64,000 bases of DNA from a virus, in IMG/VR virus record IMGVR_UViG_3300017991_000064, positions 42,875 to 106,874 of that record; one strand, written 5' to 3'. A model generated the notes under the pieces. That model ran no database searches and was not told where the DNA came from. It worked only from the letters and a program-made list of their open reading frames with translations. This document shows positions 3,696 to 44,653 of this stretch, in pieces. How positions within the stretch are numbered: the first letter of the stretch is position 1; each line of letters starts with the position of its first letter. A program made the position numbers and the translations under genes.

Positions 3696-5312
3696 ATGAA
3701 GCTATTGAGTTTGAAGATAAAGAATCTGAAATCAATTTCAACCCTCTCAATGAAATTGAAAGATGGTGTGACATTGATTGTAGGTGACAACAAGATAGGG
3801 AAGACATCAATTTTTCAGGCTATAATGTTTGCAATCTATGGTGGTGTGAAGAAAAATCTCATTCGTCATGATCAAAAGCTCTGTGAATTAATGCTAGAGT
3901 TTGAACATGACCACCATCACTACAAGATTCAACGAACATTCTACAACCGGAAAAAATCATCTGATGCTTCCTTATGGATCGATTCAATGGATGAGCCCTA
4001 TTCATCCAGTACGAAAGTAATCAATGGTCTCGCTAAACAAAGATTCCACTTCTTCAAACTCTTTGGCTTTATCTACTATACTAAGGTTAACACCTGGTTA
4101 GTAGAACAGAAAATGAAAAAAGATCAATTTCTTTTAGAACTCTTTGACCTGGACTGTATCAGTCAATTTGTTAAAGAGGGAGAATCCCACATACGGAAGT
4201 TCAGAAAAGATATTCCAGAGTGGTACTTTGAATTTGATCCTGAAGAAAAACGAATTGAACTAGATGAGGCAAAAGAAAAGAGAGAAAAGTATACTGTGGC
4301 TCTAAACAAACTAGATCAGAAAATCAGTACACTAGATAAACTTCAGGCTAAGATTAAGTTCTATCGAAAACAAACTGAAGGGAAAGAAGTTGTAAAACCT
4401 GAAATGATCGAGGAGCTAGAAAATAAGTTGGAAGATGTCCAAAAAGAAATTGGCGCTATCAATCACCTAATGAAAGCCAAGAGTAAGATTCTGAATTTCA
4501 CAAAATCCTATGACTCAGAGAACACCTGTCCACTTTGTCACTCAACAGTAAACCTAAAGAAGGTAGCAAAAGCAATTAAACAAGATCTGGCACAGTTAGA
4601 GGAGAAGGAGGAAGAATGGGAAAAGGTCAATGATCAAATTAATGAAGCTCTCAAGAAAATGATCACAAGGGATGACCTACCAGAAATTACGAAAACACAA
4701 CTTAAAAAGAACCTTGATACCCTTCCTCTTCGTCAAAAAAGATCCAAGCTCCGCGAAAGAATGAGTCCCAACTCTGCCATAATTAGTTCTATAAAGGACG
4801 AGTTATATGCCCACAGAAAGATTCAACGTCGGATAGAGGAGTCTAACATCAATGAGCTTGAAACCTCGGTGCAATCGCTATCAAGTACCATCAAGGTAAT
4901 TAATGATACAATGAAAGCCAACCTCGTTAATATGATGAACGAATTCATGTTGGTAGCATATGAGGGTAATAGCTCTATACATCTTATTGATGGTCAACTC
5001 TATTTAGAAAACAGCAGAGGAGAGAAGATTGAGTTTGATGAGATGAGTGGAGCCAATAGCGAGATAGAAATTGTAATCTTTATCTTTGCTACATCACTGA
5101 ACATTATTACAGGAAACAGAGTACTTATAATGGATGAGCTCTTTAATACCCTAGATAAGAAAACTTTTCCTAGAGCGGTGAACCTCATCCAGTATGTTAC
5201 CAAAAAGTACTTAACTCAACTCTTCATTATCTCACATCGCAATGATTTTGAATATGACCATCTATTCACCAAATCAAAGAAAAGAGATAAGTGGGGATAT
5301 ATTTCTAACTAA
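3696..5312 (+). CDS. Recombination ATPase subunit, gp46/Rad50/SbcC-like
   Basis: SMC-like ATPase partner of the gp47-like nuclease at 645. The N-terminus carries Walker A GDNKIGKTS (residues 30-38) and a Q-loop region. Long charged coiled-coil arms follow (about 170-400), with a zinc hook CPLC at residues 278-281 at the tip. The C-terminal lobe has a signature-like MSGANSE, Walker B VLIMDELFN near residue 477 with a D-loop (NTLDKKTF), and an H-loop IISHRNDF. At 538 residues it is close to T4 gp46 (much shorter than bacterial SbcC), so the arms are short. The complex processes DNA ends for recombination-dependent replication. The nuclease and ATPase genes are not adjacent here; three genes lie between them. 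The intergenic repeat copy A begins at the last base of its stop codon. Confidence 0.92.
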   Translation: MKLLSLKIKNLKSISTLSMKLKDGVTLIVGDNKIGKTSIFQAIMFAIYGGVKKNLIRHDQKLCELMLEFEHDHHHYKIQRTFYNRKKSSDASLWIDSMDEPYSSSTKVINGLAKQRFHFFKLFGFIYYTKVNTWLVEQKMKKDQFLLELFDLDCISQFVKEGESHIRKFRKDIPEWYFEFDPEEKRIELDEAKEKREKYTVALNKLDQKISTLDKLQAKIKFYRKQTEGKEVVKPEMIEELENKLEDVQKEIGAINHLMKAKSKILNFTKSYDSENTCPLCHSTVNLKKVAKAIKQDLAQLEEKEEEWEKVNDQINEALKKMITRDDLPEITKTQLKKNLDTLPLRQKRSKLRERMSPNSAIISSIKDELYAHRKIQRRIEESNINELETSVQSLSSTIKVINDTMKANLVNMMNEFMLVAYEGNSSIHLIDGQLYLENSRGEKIEFDEMSGANSEIEIVIFIFATSLNIITGNRVLIMDELFNTLDKKTFPRAVNLIQYVTKKYLTQLFIISHRNDFEYDHLFTKSKKRDKWGYISN

Positions 5313-32342: not shown

Positions 32343-34523
32343 TTAGTCATTCACGAAGTTTACAATACCGGTAGTAAGGACAGATGATCCCTTCATGTAC
32401 TCTCTATTGTTAAGAATTAAAGAATAATTGTCACATACTGGAAGAACATAAATTCGTGAGGTAGACCCTAAGAATGACAGCGTAAAACTAATCACCCCAT
32501 TTGGTTTATCTATCGTATATGAGATAGATACATAAGCATCCTGATACGTCCCCGAGGCGTCAGATAGCTCCACCTGATGATAACCAAGAGCAGGAAAAAC
32601 GAGAGTAAACTTCTTCAAATTTCTACTAATGGTATCACTAAAAGCTACCGTTGGAGCATAAGTTTCATTCGTTGATATCATAAAACGGAAGGTACCATTG
32701 AGAGTAATAATCTCCTCAACCTCCGTTGCAATCTGAGACTTGAGAGTATCGAGTGTTAGGGTCTGATCAAAGAAGTAATTCAGATTCTCAAGAGCAGCAT
32801 TGAAAAGATCACTAATGTCTCCACTTGAAGTATGATAAACATTTCCTATGTAGCACAATCCTAATTCACGGGGAGCCAGGATGGTATAGTCTACGAAGGA
32901 ATTATCTACAAAGAACTCATTCACAGCATCAATCACTGCTTGAGTGTAGGGATAGAATGTTACCTTAATAACATCACTCTCCTCATAGGCATTAGACTCA
33001 TAAACCTCTGGGATGTTCTGAAGATGGTACCTGAAATCATTCCTGGTAACCAAAGCATTATTCTCAACCTTCTTATCTCTCATATAGTTCCTAAGGAGAT
33101 CAACAGTGGAAAGATTCGGTTGAAAGATTTTTCTTTCAAACCCAATATTGATAGTTCCGAAGGTAACATCAGCATCATCAGTAAGAAGTTTGAGTAGCAT
33201 ATATGAAGAGTCTGTAGCTCCAGTTTGAGAGTTACAAAGATTCGTAAAATCAACATCACCAGCATCGTAAACCGTACCTGGGGCCGGAAGATCATTCAAC
33301 TTCATTCGAAAGGTGAAAGGTAGGTTAACGGGGGAGATATTCGGTTGAAGGTTAAATGACCATAATGTATCAGACAAACGAGTAATATCAGATGATATGA
33401 TTTCGAAGTCAGACGCCTGTAGAAGTTTAATGTTACCGGTAGGAATGTAGGTAGCCTGGCCTGTGATGCTATTCAAAGTGATGGTTCCAGCATTAAGAAT
33501 CTCAGTAATAAACTCTAGGGGAAGTTCAGTAGAAGACAGGTCTGTATCATCCAGAAGAACCTTAAAATCCTCAGTATTCAGAAGACCCGAGAATTCAACA
33601 GAGTTTAGTATCGAGAGTTCCATTGTGTCATTCACATTGAAACCCTCAAATACAATCATTACTTGTTCTTCATCGCCATTGTATGAAAGAAAAGTTTTTG
33701 TGGAATCGGTAGATTGATATTGATTAGCATACAACTCAAACTCAGTACTATCACTGACTCTTCTGATGTAGTAAACTTTGTTCAGATTACTGAAGAGTTG
33801 ATTGAAGTTAGTAGATGTGAGGACAACACTTTGAAGTGTCTGGAGTAGAGTCCGAAAGACATGATTAGAAACAATGTCGTACTGCGTGGAAGCTGTAGTT
33901 GAGCCACTTTCCCAATTGGTCACAGACATTGAAATTAGTGGAGCAGCAAACCCCAGGATCCTAGTGATAGTGATCCCTACATTCATTGTAAGGGGTACCT
34001 GAAAAACAGCAGGGTCGTTGTTAGCAGAATACAACTTCTTCGTTGGATAGAACTTGAAGTAACCTTCTACTTTTCCATCATCAGTGAACTTATGCCTTAG
34101 TCTAATTACCCCACTTAGAGTCAAGGTAAGATTCACTTCCCATGAAGCATTGTAGTCTGGATCAGTATTAGGATTCTCAGAAAAGGTGTAGTCTGTAGCA
34201 CCAGTCAGTTCATAGCCGCCCCAGAGTACCCTATTGATGGTAAACTGTCTTGCATTGAATTGAAGGAACTTCTCAAAATTGAAACCATGCCGTTGAAGAA
34301 AATTCACCAGGGTATCGAACCTTCGTGCTGATTCCTCAAAGGTCTCCTCATATGTTCTGTTAGCAAAGTAGTTTACTCTCCCGGCTATCTCACATAGGAG
34401 CTTGGAGATTACTTGCCCTGCTTCTGATTCTATCTCTCGTGACCAGTATCCCTGGTCCGACATATACTGAAAAAATTCAGACCATAATGTTTCTGGATCT
34501 GTTGTAATGAAACGCTCACTCAC
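32343..34523 (-). CDS. Baseplate wedge protein, J/gp6-like
   Basis: A 726-residue structural protein. The N-terminus (TLWSEFFQYMSDQGYWSREIESEAGQ), then LCEIAGRVNYFANRTYEETF and LVNFLQRHGF, matches the start of T4 gp6/baseplate J-type proteins, in which a helical domain lists the tail position and partner contacts. The rest is a series of beta domains. The C-terminal region carries TVDLLRNYMRDKKVENNALVTRNDF, typical of the J conserved domain near the end. The start is GTG, supported by AGGAGG six bases upstream. It follows the gp25-like gene as in P2/Mu (W then J). It forms the wedge ring that couples receptor binding to sheath contraction. Confidence 0.78.
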   Translation of the reverse strand: MSERFITTDPETLWSEFFQYMSDQGYWSREIESEAGQVISKLLCEIAGRVNYFANRTYEETFEESARRFDTLVNFLQRHGFNFEKFLQFNARQFTINRVLWGGYELTGATDYTFSENPNTDPDYNASWEVNLTLTLSGVIRLRHKFTDDGKVEGYFKFYPTKKLYSANNDPAVFQVPLTMNVGITITRILGFAAPLISMSVTNWESGSTTASTQYDIVSNHVFRTLLQTLQSVVLTSTNFNQLFSNLNKVYYIRRVSDSTEFELYANQYQSTDSTKTFLSYNGDEEQVMIVFEGFNVNDTMELSILNSVEFSGLLNTEDFKVLLDDTDLSSTELPLEFITEILNAGTITLNSITGQATYIPTGNIKLLQASDFEIISSDITRLSDTLWSFNLQPNISPVNLPFTFRMKLNDLPAPGTVYDAGDVDFTNLCNSQTGATDSSYMLLKLLTDDADVTFGTINIGFERKIFQPNLSTVDLLRNYMRDKKVENNALVTRNDFRYHLQNIPEVYESNAYEESDVIKVTFYPYTQAVIDAVNEFFVDNSFVDYTILAPRELGLCYIGNVYHTSSGDISDLFNAALENLNYFFDQTLTLDTLKSQIATEVEEIITLNGTFRFMISTNETYAPTVAFSDTISRNLKKFTLVFPALGYHQVELSDASGTYQDAYVSISYTIDKPNGVISFTLSFLGSTSRIYVLPVCDNYSLILNNREYMKGSSVLTTGIVNFVND

Positions 34524-38344: not shown

Positions 38345-40759
38345 TTAGAATCCCTCCACTGGGATTGTGATGTCATCAATGTTCGTGGTTGGTTTCATCA
38401 CTTTCACCTCTAATGGATTCTGTCTTCCACCTGAAGAAGTTGCTTCCCCACCTCGTTTAATAGCATCCATGAACACTGCCATTTGTTCCCTATTCGCCCT
38501 AGCATATTCTTCAGCAGCATTACGTGACATACTTGTAACTTTCTGTAGTTGCGTAGCTTCCTCTTTGATCTTTATCTCATCAGCCGCTCTCTTCAAATTC
38601 TCGGTCATTGTATCACCAACTCTACCTACTTCGTCAAGAGACCTATCAACAATACTGTCCCTCATTTCTTTCACATTCATGGTAGCTTGTTCTAGAGCAT
38701 CTTGGTATGCTTGTGCTATTGCACGTTTATCTGCTATACCAGCTTCCTCAGCTTTGATCTTCTTAGTTAAACTTGCTTGTCGAATCCCTTCAGCAATGGC
38801 TACCCCGGGAATATAGCCTAGTGGGCTTTCCATCCGTTTCTTACTTTTAGCTAATTGTGATTTGAGATCCTCTAGAACTTTCTCTCGACCTTCGACTCCT
38901 ATCTCCAAAGCTTTTGTACTTTGTTCAACCTGAAATTTAGCTGCTTCCACCCCCTGAGTTTCAACAACTTTCTCAAGAGATGAAATAAGCTGTTTTGGTT
39001 CTTTAATGGCTTTCTCTTTTTGAAATTCTAACTGCTTCTTGGCCATTTCTTCTGCTTCTTTTAGGTTTTTGATATCATCAAACAATCCTTTAGCTTCCTT
39101 AAAGAGATTCTTCAACTGAACATATGCAAACCTGGAAACAAGGGCTACCCCTAGAATCTTGAGACCCCCGAGAAATAGACCAGAAGCAAGCATAGGCTGG
39201 ATCCATGACATCAGTTTCTGTTTGAGACTACCAACACCAAAGACCCCAGTGTCTTTTTCTTTACCTTCAAACTTTGAAGCTAAATCCCCCATTTCATCAG
39301 CAAACTGTTCTCTATTGGCTTCATTGATATCTTTAATAGCTCGCTCTGTTTGTTGCTGTTCTCTTTTCCGTGCTTCAATATCTCTTTCCCGAACCATCCC
39401 ATCAGCTATTAAAACATTCAGCGTCTCCTCATTTAACCCACGAATTGATTCAAGGGATTCCTTGACTTCCTGATCCCCAGACACCCTCTCTGTTTTCCGT
39501 GCTGCGGATAGAGAGGACTCAATGAATTGATTCGCCGCTGCTATAGCCTCATCATATGTTTTCCCTGCTTCTCGTGCATCCTTGAAGACCTCAGCCCCTT
39601 TTTCATAGATAGCAGCTCTCTCTTCCTCAGTAACAGGTTTAATTGTTACTCTAACAGACTTAGCAGCTCTGGTTCTCACCGAAGGAGTAGGTACCTCCTT
39701 AACCTGTTCTCTAGGTTGTTCAATCTCACCGAATGCTCCAGCAACCTTAGCTCTTTCTGTCCTTCGTCTTTCTCTCTCGGCCCTATCAGTCTGTTTCCTA
39801 AGAAACTGAAAGTTTGAAGTTGCTTCCTTAGCAAAGTCATAAAAACCACCAAAAGCAGAACGTCCCAACAGATCCTGAACATTCTCTTTATAGGCCTGGC
39901 TGATTACATCCGAGTAATCAATGAACAACTTTTTATTACGTTCAAAATCGATATTTCGCTGTTTCAGTTGATCTGATAGATAAGTTTCATAATCAACAGT
40001 CAGAACGCTATTTTTAGTCAGAGCATTCTTCACATCTTCGTTGATTTCCTTGGAGGCCAGAATCTCCTTTCTCATTCTACTCTGCTCATCCAAAAGATCA
40101 AACATAGCCTTTGTTCGCTGTTGACTAAATTTAATACTAGGATCAACAAATTCCGCTATCTCTTTACTTAACTTCGTAAGGAGATTGCTATAGTTTTGAA
40201 GAGTCTCGTTATTCTGTAGAAGAGCGGTGTCCAACCGTGTAATTCTCTTCACCTCTTTGGAAATGTCTAAACCCACATCCTTGAAAACCCTCAAGGATGC
40301 CTGGATTACTTCATAACTCTGACCAGTAATAGCAGATAGATCAACAACAGATTCTGTAACATCATTAGTCCCAACCTTCGCTTCCTGGATACCTAAAGCA
40401 ATGGTAGACTTTAACTCATTCAGTAAGTCTCTAACCTCTGAGAGTCTTTCACTATTCCTCTGCTGCGTATCAGCACTAGTATCTGAGATATTTTCAGATA
40501 GCTCCATACCTAAGGAATCAATTACGCTTGAAAGAAGACCTAGCGATTTTTGCATCTGAACACTAGCATCTAAGCGTACGATAGCTTCCTTCATGCTTGT
40601 CTCAATCTCACCGAGCCTCACTTCGATATTAATAAGGTGGGTGCTTATTGATCCACCACCTTCAGGAATCATATCTCTAATAGACTGAGTAATTCCTTTA
40701 GTGAGTCCCCGAAGTAACCTTCTCAGGTCAATTCCTACACTTTCAAAGATTGAGAACAT
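38345..40759 (-). CDS. Tail tape measure protein
   Basis: An 804-residue, mainly alpha-helical protein of long charged coiled coils (RKETEIA-type composition, e.g. AERERRRTERAKVAGA), with one central hydrophobic segment (LFLGGLKILGVALVSRFAYV, about residues 526-545). This is the standard tape-measure make-up; it sets tail length and is ejected with DNA into the cell envelope. No lytic domain is visible. Length would predict a moderately long tail (about 1.5 angstrom per residue is a general rule). It follows the probable +1-frameshift chaperone region, as in other tailed phages. CGGAGGAGATAG lies upstream of the ATG and serves as SD within the chaperone extension stop. Confidence 0.85.
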   Translation of the reverse strand: MFSIFESVGIDLRRLLRGLTKGITQSIRDMIPEGGGSISTHLINIEVRLGEIETSMKEAIVRLDASVQMQKSLGLLSSVIDSLGMELSENISDTSADTQQRNSERLSEVRDLLNELKSTIALGIQEAKVGTNDVTESVVDLSAITGQSYEVIQASLRVFKDVGLDISKEVKRITRLDTALLQNNETLQNYSNLLTKLSKEIAEFVDPSIKFSQQRTKAMFDLLDEQSRMRKEILASKEINEDVKNALTKNSVLTVDYETYLSDQLKQRNIDFERNKKLFIDYSDVISQAYKENVQDLLGRSAFGGFYDFAKEATSNFQFLRKQTDRAERERRRTERAKVAGAFGEIEQPREQVKEVPTPSVRTRAAKSVRVTIKPVTEEERAAIYEKGAEVFKDAREAGKTYDEAIAAANQFIESSLSAARKTERVSGDQEVKESLESIRGLNEETLNVLIADGMVRERDIEARKREQQQTERAIKDINEANREQFADEMGDLASKFEGKEKDTGVFGVGSLKQKLMSWIQPMLASGLFLGGLKILGVALVSRFAYVQLKNLFKEAKGLFDDIKNLKEAEEMAKKQLEFQKEKAIKEPKQLISSLEKVVETQGVEAAKFQVEQSTKALEIGVEGREKVLEDLKSQLAKSKKRMESPLGYIPGVAIAEGIRQASLTKKIKAEEAGIADKRAIAQAYQDALEQATMNVKEMRDSIVDRSLDEVGRVGDTMTENLKRAADEIKIKEEATQLQKVTSMSRNAAEEYARANREQMAVFMDAIKRGGEATSSGGRQNPLEVKVMKPTTNIDDITIPVEGF

Positions 40760-40764
40760 TTATA

Positions 40765-40941
40765 CTATCTCCTCCGTTGATTTTGCTCTTTCCTTCTTTC
40801 AATGGTTTTATTTGCAACTTCATTTAGGTCGGTAGGTTCCGACTCTAAGATATCGTTGAGACTCATCTTCATTAACTCATTCAGAATACTTAGATTCTTG
40901 TAGAATGAGTCATGACTATATAAACGTAGTAATCTCTCGAA
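40765..40941 (-). CDS. +1-frame extension of tail assembly chaperone (likely GT-type product)
   Basis: An open frame without its own SD runs from 40989 to a stop at 40765, just before the tape measure. Joined after the CCC codon at 40945-40943 of the upstream gene (CCC TTT, a classic +1-slippery context), it would extend that protein by 58 codons: FERLLRLYSHDSFYKNL..., then LNELMKMSLNDILESEP and a basic end KEQNQRRR, about 297 residues in all. A G/GT-type frameshifted chaperone just before the tape measure is the usual arrangement in tailed phages. A sequencing error or -2 shift is the alternative. Confidence 0.6.
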   Translation of the reverse strand, partial: FERLLRLYSHDSFYKNLSILNELMKMSLNDILESEPTDLNEVANKTIERRKEQNQRRR

Positions 40942-41659
40942 AGGGTATTCGTAGCGACACCTCCTGGTCGCATTTAGAACAGGTCTTTTTCATTGTAGCG
41001 GGAAGACCGTAGGACATCATTCGTCCTATCATCTGCTTTATGGGAACATACCATTGATAATCAAAGTCGTTCTCAACCATTTCGAATCTCTCATCTAGAG
41101 TAGTTGACCTCTCTGTAATAAGACAGGCGGCTGCTCTTAGTTTAACCTCTTCCATGAACAGATCATCAAGAGCCTCATCATAAGCAACTGAGTTGACATC
41201 CTCTGGGAGATTGTTTTTCATCTCTTCAGTTCTAGCAAGGATCTCAGCAAGATCGCCCACTCTCAGGAACGTGAATTTATGCTTATCGACCCTAAATTCC
41301 TTTCCATCGTATGGTATTGGAACTAGCTCAGAGAGATCAAGAATATCAGTGTTTTCTACACCACAATCACATTCCCACCCAAAGGTGTAGAGATTCCCCT
41401 CTGGGATGGAAGCCATTCTGATAGCCACCGCTAAGAAATCAAAATCCACTACGGCGAGATTTGACATCTTCTCTAGTCCCTCAATAGCTACAACCTCTTG
41501 AAAGACTTCCACCATAGCTTCATACTTGATGGCCCTAGGCATCTCTTTCTTCTGAAATTTAGCAAGGTGTTTCTGGTGTTTCATCTTGATCCCAGTAAAC
41601 AAAGCCTCGTTTCCATAAATACTCCCATTTGTAGGAAGCATAAGAATAAGATCTGACAT
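40916..41659 (-). CDS. Tail assembly chaperone / baseplate hub protein, T4 gp26-like (PF12322 type)
   Basis: A 247-residue protein (start ATG 41659 has GGAGG nine bases upstream; the in-frame GTG at 41665 is less likely). It contains a CxC (C97, C99 in WECDCG) and a late CSKC (C227, C230), probably a zinc site. LEKMSNLAVVDFDFLAVAIR, then MIGRMMSYGLPATM, match the T4 base-plate family to which gp26 belongs. Location between tube and tape measure fits a chaperone of tail assembly. The frame ends at TAG 40916, but an open +1 frame continues for 50 more codons to the tape measure (see separate entry). Confidence 0.65.
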   Translation of the reverse strand: MSDLILMLPTNGSIYGNEALFTGIKMKHQKHLAKFQKKEMPRAIKYEAMVEVFQEVVAIEGLEKMSNLAVVDFDFLAVAIRMASIPEGNLYTFGWECDCGVENTDILDLSELVPIPYDGKEFRVDKHKFTFLRVGDLAEILARTEEMKNNLPEDVNSVAYDEALDDLFMEEVKLRAAACLITERSTTLDERFEMVENDFDYQWYVPIKQMIGRMMSYGLPATMKKTCSKCDQEVSLRIPFREITTFI

Positions 41660-41676: not shown

Positions 41677-42180
41677 TTAACCAGTTACTCTCTCAGCGTG
41701 AACCTCGAAGGTACCAGTTAGTTTGTATACTTGGTTTCTGTCCTCTCCCATTCTAGGATGAGATAAGGATGATAAAAATCCTGTGTATGTAAAAGTCTTA
41801 AAGACCTGATTTCCAGTTTGTTCATAGATATATATAGAGAGATCCCTCTGATATTCCACAGGATAATTAAGCAGACCGTCTTTGGTTCTATTACTTCTAA
41901 CCCAAGTATCAAAGTAGTTTAGAATCTCTGCTTTTTGTTCATCCGTGATTAACACATCGAATGAAATATCAGTTCTTTGCTCATTCAAAGGAACCTTAAT
42001 TTGCTCTGAAGCTTCATTCCTGATGTTATTAGTATTAAACTCCTTGGATGGAACCCCAATCTTCACTATAAGGTTCTCAATATTTAGGTCCTGAAATTCC
42101 ACGCGGTACTTGTAACACTTAAGAAATGACATGAGTAGGGTGGGGGAAAAGACCCCCACCCCAGCGTTTCTCGATGCCAT
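41677..42180 (-). CDS. Tail tube-like protein 2 (gp19-like)
   Basis: A 167-residue tube-family protein: KYRVEFQDLNIENLIVKIG (first strand pair), LITDEQKAEILNYFDTWV, YPVEYQRDLSIYIY, TYTGFLSSLSH, then LTGTFEVHAERV, in the strand order of gp19/P2 FII tube subunits. Two starts are possible. ATG 42180 overlaps the sheath stop (TAATG), with GAAGGTG upstream. ATG 42132 gives the N-terminus MSFLKCYKYRVEF but has no SD. A strong hairpin (42138-42161) lies between them. It follows the sheath gene, the usual place of the tube gene. Confidence 0.72.
   Translation of the reverse strand: MASRNAGVGVFSPTLLMSFLKCYKYRVEFQDLNIENLIVKIGVPSKEFNTNNIRNEASEQIKVPLNEQRTDISFDVLITDEQKAEILNYFDTWVRSNRTKDGLLNYPVEYQRDLSIYIYEQTGNQVFKTFTYTGFLSSLSHPRMGEDRNQVYKLTGTFEVHAERVTG
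42138..42161 (-). terminator. Strong hairpin at sheath/tube junction
   Basis: A perfect nine-base-pair GC stem (GGGTGGGGG with CCCCCACCC, six-base loop) lies 19-42 bases beyond the sheath stop, at codons 7-15 of the next reading frame. It may act as a partial terminator or RNA-stabilising 3' end after the sheath. If the tube gene starts at 42180, the stem lies inside its coding region. Confidence 0.6.
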
Positions 42181-44081
42181 TAAGCTACACCTTCAGTTAC
42201 GAACACTGAAGAAGGAGCAACAACAACCTTAACATACAGATTCTTAATCAACCGAGTAGGTGACATATAGAATTCTGCATTGAGATCTTCAGAATCAAGA
42301 TCGTTGATGTCAAGGTCACATTTAGGGTCTGGTGATGTCTCAAGTATGGCTTCCTGAGCAACCAACCAATCCCTCTCTTCCTTCAGTACACCCTGGAACC
42401 TAGCTATCCTCGTGGGAGTCAGATACTTAAATCTGAATCCAACAGCCAGGTTCCTTATCCTTCGTTTCACATAGTTGAGAAGCAATCTGATTGCAATAGA
42501 CTGAGCATAGCCTTCCTTCGGGTGGGAGGTGAACTCAGTCTCAACCACATTGCCAACCCCAGTGAAGTACCGAACCGGGTTAATCTCAGCATCAGCAAGG
42601 GATTCAGCTTCAGATTCTGTAAGAATCCTTTCTACCGTCCCCATGAGTTTGAAATCATCCCCAATAGGCACCTGGAAGATGCTATAGTTCGGATCGAGGA
42701 ACAAAGGCTGCATTGCAGATGAAGCATAGAGCGGTACATCGCTGATATCATTGTCCACATCCTCAAAGGATAGATTCGGATAATACCAACAACTGTACTT
42801 CGAATCTATACCTGTTCCCTCCTTGTGGGTGATAGCATCAGCAGGTATTGTCCCCCATGGAATTGAAAGAACTGCAATTGACTGTTCAGCTGTTTCGCAG
42901 ATTGATTCAATCTTCTGTTGGATAGTAGACGTCGTGTAACCACAGTCAGGAAAGCAATGTGGTTTCAGAGCTGCCAGATCAGACAGATAATCCAGAGCAG
43001 TTACAATGTCACCAGCAGCGGGTTCTGAACCATTGTCTCCCCCACCAAACAGAAGCTGTGTTGCCTGAGCTTCTGGTAGTACAGTTTCAGCAATGACATC
43101 ATTGTTGATAACATTGATATATGCACTCTTTCCATTTATCTTGTCTTCAATGAACTGACTCCGACCAAAACCATCCTTCTTGTTGGTATTCCTAGATACC
43201 TCATATTCCTCAAGGAACTCATAGGTTGCCAGGTCACTGTCATACCGATAGACAGAAAGAACAAAGGTTTCATCGGTTGCATCAACACCAGTAACAGTTA
43301 CCGCCAGGTTGTTGTCAACCTGGCCCCAATACTTTCCGACCACCAGGAAAAGCTCGTTAGCCTGGAAAACGTAGGTATTGGGATCAAGGAGACCAGTTGT
43401 TAAGGCATGATTACCAAAACCATCTGGGTCAACATCAAAAGTGAAACCAGCACCAGATACATCATTCGGGGCAGCTAGTACCACACCCTTGTTGGCATTG
43501 GTTACTGTTACCTCAGCCGCCGGTGGGTTAGGAGCAGAGAAGTCTGCTTCAGCATCGAGGGCTGTAGCTACAGCATCTGCAACATCATTGGCAGTATCAG
43601 CGGTACTAATGCTAACCTTTACATTCTCCACATTGTCAGCACTATCATCCGGCTCATTGGTACCTGCGGCATCAATATCAAACCATACCTGATAGGTTGT
43701 TGATGGAGAACTGATAGTAAAGTAATCACCCTGACTGATGGCAGCTTCTGCAACACAAGTTACATCGGTTACCTCAGCAACCGGTGAATCCTTGGATACG
43801 ATTATTGCACCACCAGCAAGCATCCCATCGGCTATTCTCATACACCAGGTGGGTGCCTTAGCAATTGCTGCCATTGCAGCGTAGTAGAACTTGGTATCAA
43901 AACCACGAGCAGCTCCACCGAAGATCCTTACGAAATCACTCTGCTTCTCAAGAAGCATAGGTGTAAATGGCTGGCCCTGTTTTGCATAACCGAAGGCTAC
44001 ACCATACTTACCCAGATCACGTGAGGCTTTATTCGGTTCGACGATTTGCTCAATGATCTTCAGTTCAGGAAGTTTTCCCAT
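42180..44081 (-). CDS. Contractile tail sheath protein (gp18-like)
   Basis: A 633-residue sheath subunit. The N-terminal region (LPELKIIEQIVEPNKASRDL, FGYAKQGQPFTPMLLEKQSD, FGGAARGFDTKFYYAAMAA) is the family opening. A domain inserted at about 120-200 (YQVWFDIDAAGTNEPDDSAD) is like an adhesion-type extra domain found in many phage structural proteins. The C-terminal part (ILTESEAESLADAEINPVRYF, QSIAIRLLLNYVKRRIRN, FYMSPTRLIKNLYVKVVV) is the conserved sheath core with the terminal strand that links subunits. AAGGAGG with spacer AAAAGAAA precedes ATG. It is flanked on both sides by tube-like genes. Contraction drives the tube through the envelope. Confidence 0.92.
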   Translation of the reverse strand: MGKLPELKIIEQIVEPNKASRDLGKYGVAFGYAKQGQPFTPMLLEKQSDFVRIFGGAARGFDTKFYYAAMAAIAKAPTWCMRIADGMLAGGAIIVSKDSPVAEVTDVTCVAEAAISQGDYFTISSPSTTYQVWFDIDAAGTNEPDDSADNVENVKVSISTADTANDVADAVATALDAEADFSAPNPPAAEVTVTNANKGVVLAAPNDVSGAGFTFDVDPDGFGNHALTTGLLDPNTYVFQANELFLVVGKYWGQVDNNLAVTVTGVDATDETFVLSVYRYDSDLATYEFLEEYEVSRNTNKKDGFGRSQFIEDKINGKSAYINVINNDVIAETVLPEAQATQLLFGGGDNGSEPAAGDIVTALDYLSDLAALKPHCFPDCGYTTSTIQQKIESICETAEQSIAVLSIPWGTIPADAITHKEGTGIDSKYSCWYYPNLSFEDVDNDISDVPLYASSAMQPLFLDPNYSIFQVPIGDDFKLMGTVERILTESEAESLADAEINPVRYFTGVGNVVETEFTSHPKEGYAQSIAIRLLLNYVKRRIRNLAVGFRFKYLTPTRIARFQGVLKEERDWLVAQEAILETSPDPKCDLDINDLDSEDLNAEFYMSPTRLIKNLYVKVVVAPSSVFVTEGVA

Positions 44082-44116: not shown

Positions 44117-44653
44117 TCACGAATGCAGATAGATATCATACAGCCACGTGATACTCAGATCCACCTTAGCTGTCTTGTCTGCGTAGTCAAGGTTCGTATC
44201 TGGATTTGAGGACGGCTGAGCATTCTTCAGAGTGTAGGTCATGTAAGCCTCATCTGCATCACTAAGAGCCTGTAACAACCTTAGCTGAATGTCAACAACC
44301 CTATCTTCCTTGCGAACTGCTTCACCAGTTTCTGGATCAAAAGATAGATCGAGCCAGGATTCAATGATCTTCAGTACTGAACCATCTATAGTTTCAGTGA
44401 AATTACAAGTCCAGTTGTGTTCATAAGAGGGAGCACCAGTGTCTGTAATCTCAATTCCCATGTAGTTATCAATGATTGGTTCCATTGACCGTTTAGGAAT
44501 TGTAAGACTCCTGACCCTCAACCTAAGAACATCTGGAGCATTGGGAACAATACCTGCTATTGCAGATGGTAGCCGGGGAAAAGACAGTTCCCATAGGAAA
44601 CCTTTTGCTACCGTTCCAAGGCCCTGGACCAAAGAGAAAGGAACTCTTGGCAT
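44117..44653 (-). CDS. Tail tube-like protein 1 (gp19-like)
   Basis: A 178-residue protein with the pattern of T4 gp19 tube proteins: FLWELSFPRLPSAIAGI, LRVRSLTIPKRSMEPI, then YEHNWTCNFTETIDGSVLKIIESWLDL, and a C-terminal VDLSITWLYDIYLHS. AAAGGAGGAG is a strong SD. Together with the gene at 41677 it brackets the sheath; this one resembles a gp19-type tube more than an adaptor, but either may be the true tube. Repeat copy B and a hairpin lie in its 149-base leader, suggesting its own promoter. Confidence 0.72.
   Translation of the reverse strand: MPRVPFSLVQGLGTVAKGFLWELSFPRLPSAIAGIVPNAPDVLRLRVRSLTIPKRSMEPIIDNYMGIEITDTGAPSYEHNWTCNFTETIDGSVLKIIESWLDLSFDPETGEAVRKEDRVVDIQLRLLQALSDADEAYMTYTLKNAQPSSNPDTNLDYADKTAKVDLSITWLYDIYLHS

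What the first reader, a model, noticed from the sequence alone, without database searches (positions are those of the whole stretch)
40765..41659. Candidate programmed +1 frameshift before the tape measure
The gp26-like chaperone frame stops at 40916, yet a protein-like +1 frame continues without its own SD to 40765, five bases before the tape-measure ATG. A CCC TTT sequence (40945-40940) lies in the overlap and could let tRNA-Pro slip +1, giving a 297-residue fusion from the 247-residue product. Tailed phages use two chaperone forms made by frameshifting at exactly this place, but usually by -1 (or -2 in Mu); a +1 site would be unusual.
Basis: partly seen in the sequence, partly recalled or inferred. 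Interest (0 to 1): 0.6.

Follow-up and report, generated by a model that had tools for sequence, protein, structure and literature searches.

The report
Phage tail chaperone +1 frameshift
A large tailed phage appears to make a long and a short form of its tail-building helper protein by having some ribosomes skip one base at UUU-CGA, the same kind of skip site known from influenza virus and plant viruses, and distant relatives of the phage keep that site in about the same place.

Summary
The gene is a T4 gp26-type tail assembly chaperone (TAC-N, 247 aa). The overlapping +1 frame encodes the TAC-C domain (T4 gp51 C-terminus), giving a 297-residue TAC-NC. A profile built from other phages' extensions, window excluded, ranks this +1 ORF first of 947 six-frame ORFs (E 3e-4; next 0.65). 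Across 49 related loci the chaperone and its extension always lie in different frames: about 37 in +1, 12 in -1, none continuous. This makes a sequencing indel very unlikely. In the SP-15-like clade the shift maps to a conserved C-terminal Phe-Phe-Arg encoded TTY TTT CGN. All 21 Arg codons there are CGN, although these phages mostly use AGA/AGG. This is UUU_CGN, the +1 motif of influenza PA-X, amalgaviruses and ASXL. I found no report of it in phages or bacteria, in open-access text only. A subclade uses CCC_AGU. T4-like relatives shift -1 at T TTT TTC at the same Phe-Phe codons; that and T4's split gp26/gp51 solution appear already published. No translation was measured.

The parts
40916..41659 (-). 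TAC-N: T4 gp26-type tail assembly chaperone, 247 aa, zero frame
   Evidence: PF12322 T4_baseplate 28.2 bits, above the gathering cut-off; phrog_13792 and phrog_150; chaperone profile from relatives ranks it first in the window, E 5.8e-10; predicted fold matches Bacillus phage SP-15 hub, E 1e-9
40937..40945 (-). shift site CCC_UUU_CGA: P-site UUU slips to UUC, C40939 skipped (CCC_U slip is the alternative)
   Evidence: UUU_CGN conserved at the end of the chaperone in the SP-15-like clade; TTT-CGN pair rare in the window
40765..40938 (-). TAC-C extension in the +1 frame (57 residues from the Glu after the slip; stop at 40767-40765); the stop-to-stop ORF begins at 40989
   Evidence: best of 947 six-frame ORFs against a profile of extensions from other phages, E 3.1e-4; two predicted helices, 249-272 and 278-296 of the fusion
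38345..40759 (-). tape measure protein, the expected client of the chaperones
   Evidence: 804 aa ORF at the position of the annotated tape measure gene in SP-15, LIS04, Molly_1 and immuto; no profile hit of its own
41677..42180 (-). tail tube protein upstream of the chaperone
   Evidence: phrog_1842 and phrog_45 tail tube, E 4e-8 and 1e-7
42180..44081 (-). tail sheath protein
   Evidence: phrog_1036 tail sheath, E 3e-8

Best explanation
The locus is a G/GT-type tail assembly chaperone gene pair. Most ribosomes make TAC-N (247 aa) and stop at 40916. [quoted passage not shown] TAC-N would coat the tape measure protein and the extra C-terminal domain would recruit tail tube subunits, as lambda gpG/gpGT do. 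Shown here by sequence: the frames, homology of both domains, conservation of the frame change and of UUU_CGN in relatives. Inferred: that the shift happens, its rate, the exact slipping codon in this phage, and the roles of the two products.
For: (1) The +1 ORF is recognised by a profile of extensions built without the window, first of 947, E 3.1e-4. (2) In 45 of 45 loci, plus four cultured-phage loci, the chaperone is followed by an extension in another frame, none continuous. (3) In the +1 clade the shared overlap narrows to TTY TTT CGN; in L080/L081 the overlap is 17 nt and holds TTG TTT CGT ATA TAG. (4) 21 of 21 Arg codons in the A-site position are CGN, with CGN being 5-63% of Arg codons in those loci; product of the local frequencies 2.8e-17, treating loci as independent. 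The P-site Phe is TTT in 29 of 31, the two exceptions belonging to the CCC_AGU subclade, while the Phe before it varies TTT/TTC. (5) Differences between extension pairs fall 198/118/277 on codon positions 1/2/3 of the extension frame, so that frame is under protein selection. (6) No Shine-Dalgarno-led start near the chaperone stop in the extension frame of nearly all +1 loci. (7) The predicted chaperone fold ends at strand 233-237, just before the slip at residues 239-240. (8) UUU_C with A-site CGN was proposed as a +1 class from PA-X (PMC3498833).
Against: No ribosome profiling, peptide or reporter data. In a gapless alignment from the CxxC motif the window's TTT CGA sits about 5 codons upstream of the clade's FF-R position, so the site is not exactly homologous. 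The window is on a long branch and its place relative to the +1 and -1 groups is unsure. The window-versus-profile score is modest (16.8 bits). Some +1 relatives lack UUU_C (LIS04 TTT TTT AGT; L043, L079 and Mel-JY01 TTT TTT TGG; the CCC_AGU subclade), so the motif is a strong preference, not a law.
Confidence: 0.85

Rival explanations
1. The +1 shift happens on the proline codon: tRNA-Pro in the P site slips from CCC to CCU, as the first reader proposed and as in Listeria phage PSA.
For: CCC_U is a proven +1 site (PSA, A118, A500; PMC5009743). A subclade here (L034, L037, L039, L040) lacks TTT C and keeps AAT CCC AGT although CCC is 2-7% of its Pro codons, so CCC_N seems to be used in this family.
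Against: CCC is a common Pro codon in the window (22%), CCC-TNN is seven times more frequent than TTT-CGN, the A-site codon would be the common UUU, and the motif shared with relatives is TTT CGN.
Confidence: 0.2
2. The frame break is a sequencing or assembly indel, or a decayed gene; the real gene is continuous.
For: The record is an environmental virus contig and single-base errors occur.
Against: Every one of 49 loci, including isolate genomes SP-15, LIS04, GXN1, Mel-JY01 and immuto, has a frame change at the end of the chaperone gene.
Confidence: 0.03
3. The extension is a separate small protein made by re-initiation after the chaperone stop, not a fusion.
For: In some -1 relatives (KVP40, Bellamy) an ATG lies at or just after the stop and the ORF is annotated as separate gp51.
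Against: In the window the first +1-frame start is an ATG 43 nt past the stop, without a Shine-Dalgarno, and would drop most of the first helix; most +1 loci have no start near the stop.
Confidence: 0.06
4. The ribosome shifts -2 (as in Mu) or the polymerase slips, reaching the same frame.
For: Several relatives have six T in a row, on which -2 re-pairing or polymerase slippage is conceivable.
Against: The window has only TTT between C's; -2 from UUU would land on CCU and from CCC on UAC. Eight relatives have TTC TTT, which breaks both.
Confidence: 0.04

Closest known systems
Lambda gpG/gpGT and T4-like gp26/gp51 tail assembly chaperones (TAC-N/TAC-NC)
   Same: Gene between tail tube and tape measure, short form plus a longer form with an extra C-terminal domain reached by changing frame near the 3' end; the window protein is a PF12322 homologue and its extension belongs to the same family as T4 gp51's C-terminus.
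   Different: Lambda and the T4-like relatives seen here shift -1 (T TTT TTC in the latter); T4 itself encodes the two forms as separate genes 26 and 51; here the shift is +1.
Influenza A PA-X, amalgavirus and ASXL UUU_CGN +1 frameshift sites
   Same: P-site UUU followed by C with an Arg CGN codon in the A site; no consistent downstream RNA structure; same peptide logic (Phe kept, one C skipped).
   Different: Those are eukaryotic systems; here the translation machinery is bacterial, the site lies 27 nt from the end of the zero-frame stop (12-51 nt in relatives), and the E-site codon is CCC in the window and mostly Phe in relatives, not UCC.
Listeria phage PSA/A118/A500 +1 shifts on CCC
   Same: Phage structural genes, +1, proline codon CCC available at the site.
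   Different: Those sites are in capsid and major tail genes, at CCC_UGA or CCC_UCC; here CCC precedes UUU_CGA and is not conserved in most relatives.
Haloarchaeal virus HSTV-2 tail chaperone (likely +1)
   Same: A myovirus tail assembly chaperone reported as very likely +1 (PMC5009743).
   Different: Apparently another lineage; its site was not compared here.

Membership tests
Tail assembly chaperone TAC-N/TAC-NC (T4 gp26/gp51 type) | Homology of the short form to gp26-type chaperones | tested here: met
   PF12322 28.2 bits over cut-off; profile E 5.8e-10; fold match to SP-15 hub
Tail assembly chaperone TAC-N/TAC-NC (T4 gp26/gp51 type) | Position between tail tube and tape measure gene | tested here: met
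Tail assembly chaperone TAC-N/TAC-NC (T4 gp26/gp51 type) | Second, out-of-frame C-terminal domain homologous to gp51's end | tested here: met
   window +1 ORF E 3.1e-4, rank 1 of 947; T4 gp51 matches the -1-group extension profile, E 2.6e-6
Tail assembly chaperone TAC-N/TAC-NC (T4 gp26/gp51 type) | Both forms are made, in a fixed ratio, and act on the tape measure | not testable with these tools
   needs expression or proteomics
UUU_CGN +1 frameshift class (PA-X type) | P-site UUU followed by C | tested here: met
   TTT C at 40942-40939
UUU_CGN +1 frameshift class (PA-X type) | A-site CGN codon, conserved across relatives beyond codon usage | tested here: met
   21 of 21 Arg codons CGN
UUU_CGN +1 frameshift class (PA-X type) | E-site UCC | tested here: not met
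   CCC in the window, mostly Phe in relatives; UCC is a PA-X feature and is not part of the UUU_CGN motif as named for amalgaviruses
UUU_CGN +1 frameshift class (PA-X type) | No need of a downstream stimulator | tested here: inconclusive
   mean folding z -0.47 over 32 loci, window -1.9 or -0.61
UUU_CGN +1 frameshift class (PA-X type) | Transframe peptide shown by mass spectrometry | not testable with these tools
   none available
CCC +1 class (Listeria phage PSA) | Slip occurs on the proline codon | tested here: inconclusive
   CCC_U present but CCC not conserved outside the CCC_AGU subclade
Mu-type -2 shift | Slip codon can re-pair two bases upstream | tested here: not met
   window sequence gives CCU or UAC at -2; TTC TTT relatives likewise cannot re-pair

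The most novel reading that the evidence does not exclude
UUU_CGN is a +1 frameshift signal that works on bacterial as well as eukaryotic ribosomes. An entire phage lineage, with hosts including Bacillus, Listeria and Streptococcus and many uncultured phages, evolved it from or alongside a -1 site at the same Phe-Phe codons: T before the codon pair gives -1 (T TTT TTC), C after it gives +1 (TTT CGN).
Probability: 0.6. Interest if true: 0.72.

Novelty: new variant of a known kind. Interest (0 to 1): 0.6.

Why it matters
+1 frameshift sites are hard to spot and no general motif for them is agreed on in prokaryotes (PRFect paper, PMC10885494). A deeply conserved UUU_CGN site in phages would supply one. 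It would show that the PA-X-type signal does not depend on eukaryotic ribosomes, and would let the puzzling A-site CGN preference be dissected in bacteria, where the tRNAs are well known and easy to manipulate. It also gives a natural series in which the same two codons drive -1 or +1 shifting, and it shows that the small ORF before the tape measure gene in SP-15, Molly/Colly and immuto, and the unannotated stretch in LIS04, are overlooked parts of a chaperone.

Tried and rejected
Direct DNA and protein searches with the window's chaperone, sheath and capsid proteins found no close relative; relatives were reached through the capsid protein and the GXN1/SP-15/LIS04 chaperones. A sequencing indel, re-initiation, -2 shifting and polymerase slippage were considered and rejected as above. 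A shared downstream RNA stimulator was looked for and not found. An open alternative frame alone was rejected as evidence, since 30% of control gene ends have one. Phage tRNAs were checked: the record carries only tRNA-Gln and tRNA-Leu, neither reading Phe, Arg or Pro. Searches of solved structures found no chaperone homologue. Aligning extensions together with the fusion misplaced them and was not used. The automatic site picker chose a wrong TTT CTA in L008; the site used for L008 is the AAC TTT CTA just before its stop. The paper that identified T4-like chaperone genes (Vladimirov et al. 2022) is not held, so whether it covers SP-15 is unknown to me.

Full report
What is in the window. The window is part of a 106,874-base IMG/VR virus record. 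On the minus strand the tail genes run sheath (42180-44081), tail tube (41677-42180), the gene in question (40916-41659), then a tape-measure ORF (38345-40759). The gene is a T4 gp26-type protein: PF12322 at 28.2 bits, above the Pfam cut-off. It stops at 40916. The +1 frame is open from 40989 to 40765, has no start codon of its own until 43 nt past the stop, and ends five bases before the tape-measure ATG. Every coordinate in the finding is correct, and reading CCCU as one step gives a 297-residue product.

Relatives. No close relative turned up in the collections searched. The major capsid protein pointed to Bacillus phage SP-15, Listeria phage LIS04, Streptococcus phage GXN1 and Maribacter Molly/Colly. 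In SP-15, LIS04 and GXN1 the gp26-like gene lies just before the tape measure region, and in each one the +1 frame overlaps its end and runs on well past the stop, in SP-15 and LIS04 almost to the annotated tape measure. In Molly/Colly the same happens in the -1 frame. Searching onward with these proteins brought 38 IMG/VR loci, further ones, and two contigs in bacterial MAGs. Of 45 loci analysed (a few are near-duplicates, and one is SP-15 itself), 34 have the extension in +1 and 11 in -1; none is continuous. Four further isolates gave Microcystis phage Mel-JY01 +1, Flavobacterium phage immuto +1, Xanthomonas phage XacN1 -1, and Alishewanella phage Slickus01 probably +1. A sequencing error in the window cannot explain this pattern.

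The extension is a real protein domain. A profile of 42 extensions, window excluded, scores the window's +1 ORF first among all 947 stop-to-stop ORFs of the 64 kb, at E 3.1e-4 against 0.65 for the next. Profiles of the +1 and -1 extensions find most of each other's members, so they look like one family. Nucleotide differences between related extensions fall 198, 118 and 277 on codon positions 1, 2 and 3 of the extension frame, as expected for a translated frame under selection. In the predicted structure of the fusion (mean pLDDT 77) the chaperone fold ends with a strand pair at 222-237, the slip is at 239-240, and two lower-confidence helices follow. The model matches baseplate-hub proteins of T4-like and SP-15 phages, E about 1e-9, in the viral library.

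Where the shift happens. In the SP-15-like clade the tightest overlaps leave only the codons around a conserved Phe-Phe-Arg near the chaperone's C-terminus: TTT TTT CGT or TTC TTT CGT. The Arg codon is CGN in 21 of 21 loci that have Arg there, although CGN makes up 5-63% of Arg codons in those loci, mostly 21% or less. The product of the local frequencies is 2.8e-17, an overstatement to the extent that loci are related. The second Phe is TTT in 29 of 31, while the first Phe varies between TTT and TTC. The first base of the A-site codon is C in 25 of 32; it also stays C where the zero-frame residue is His (SP-15, L029). In L080/L081 the whole overlap is 17 nt and contains TTG TTT CGT ATA TAG. 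One subclade (L034, L037, L039, L040) lacks TTT C and keeps AAT CCC AGT instead, with CCC only 2-7% of its Pro codons, so a Pro-codon slip may replace it. A further group (L043, L079, Mel-JY01, immuto, L008) has TTT TTT TGG or TTT CTN.

The window itself. It carries CCC UUU CGA at 40945-40937, which satisfies both readings. TTT-CGN occurs in frame only four times in 20,300 codons and about 0.005 would be expected in the 24-codon overlap; CCC-TNN is seven times commoner. I therefore prefer tRNA-Phe slipping from UUU to UUC with CGA in the A site, at roughly three to one over CCC_U. Both give the same protein. Caveats: by gapless alignment the window's UUU_CGA is about five codons upstream of the clade's site, and the window sits on a very long branch, although the +1-group chaperone profile scores it higher (34.8 bits) than the -1-group profile (18.9 bits).

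Comparison with what is known. UUU_C followed by CGN is the +1 class defined from influenza PA-X, where a transframe peptide was sequenced, and predicted for other eukaryotic viruses (PMC3498833). UUU_CGN was later named for plant amalgaviruses and noted for ASXL. The five open-access papers holding the string UUU_CGN with frameshift concern plant viruses or vertebrate genes, judging by titles and abstracts; none concerns phages or bacteria. The TAC-N/TAC-NC principle is classical (lambda G/GT; PMC5009743), and +1 versions have been suggested before (HSTV-2; 350 forward cases in the PRFect training set from SEA-PHAGES, PMC10885494).

In the T4-like relatives here (KVP40, cyanophage Bellamy, Atu_ph07, environmental L045-L050) the extension is in -1 with T TTT TTC or T TTT TTT at the same Phe-Phe codons. 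T4 gp26 matches the chaperone profile alone, while gp51 matches both the chaperone (E 9e-6) and the extension (E 2.6e-6) profiles, so T4 seems to encode the two forms as separate genes. From its title, as cited in PMC10885494 and PMC12846349, and from my memory of the abstract, this T4 result is already published (Vladimirov, Gautam and Davidson 2022). I could not read that paper. What appears new is the +1 UUU_CGN site, its depth of conservation, and the -1/+1 alternation at one codon pair.

What is shown and what is not. Shown by sequence: frames, homology, conservation and codon bias. Not shown: that the shift occurs, how often, on which codon in this phage, and what TAC-NC does. No stimulatory RNA structure is shared (mean z -0.47), in line with the low-efficiency PA-X class; lambda-type chaperones likewise need only a few percent of the long form (about 30:1 in lambda, PMC5009743).

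Noticed in passing
L051 3803-4429 and 4480-5229 (phage T4 genes 26 and 51): gp26 matches the chaperone (TAC-N) profile only, gp51 matches both chaperone and extension profiles, so T4 seems to replace the frameshift by two genes; apparently already published in 2022.
   Followed up: partly
L009, L010, L011, L007, L045-L050, L086: T4-like and jumbo relatives carry T TTT TTC or T TTT TTT at the chaperone's Phe-Phe codons with the extension in the -1 frame, often annotated as a separate gp51 or hypothetical gene.
   Followed up: partly
L034, L037, L039, L040 near 3700: A subclade has AAT CCC AGT instead of TTT CGN as the only plausible +1 site, with CCC a rare Pro codon there.
   Followed up: partly
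L004 30281-30400; L002 29663-29839; L085 2315-2425: Small 'hypothetical' genes annotated before the tape measure in SP-15, Molly_1 and immuto appear to be parts of the chaperone's frameshift extension.
   Followed up: partly
window 40916-41659 (residues C97, C99, C227, C230): Four conserved cysteines in CxC/CxxC pairs suggest a metal-binding knuckle in the chaperone; a weak zinc-finger match in solved structures.
   Followed up: no
window 41677-42180 and 44117-44653: Two tail-tube-like proteins flank the sheath gene; both match phrog_45 tail tube.
   Followed up: no
L019 about 3730-3860 versus L052: L019's extension ends early compared with its close relative L052, perhaps a disruption or assembly error in that contig.
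   Followed up: no
G000:C1:7986-8057 and 33332-33416 (outside the window): The phage record carries tRNA-Gln(ttg) and tRNA-Leu(tag) genes.
   Followed up: yes
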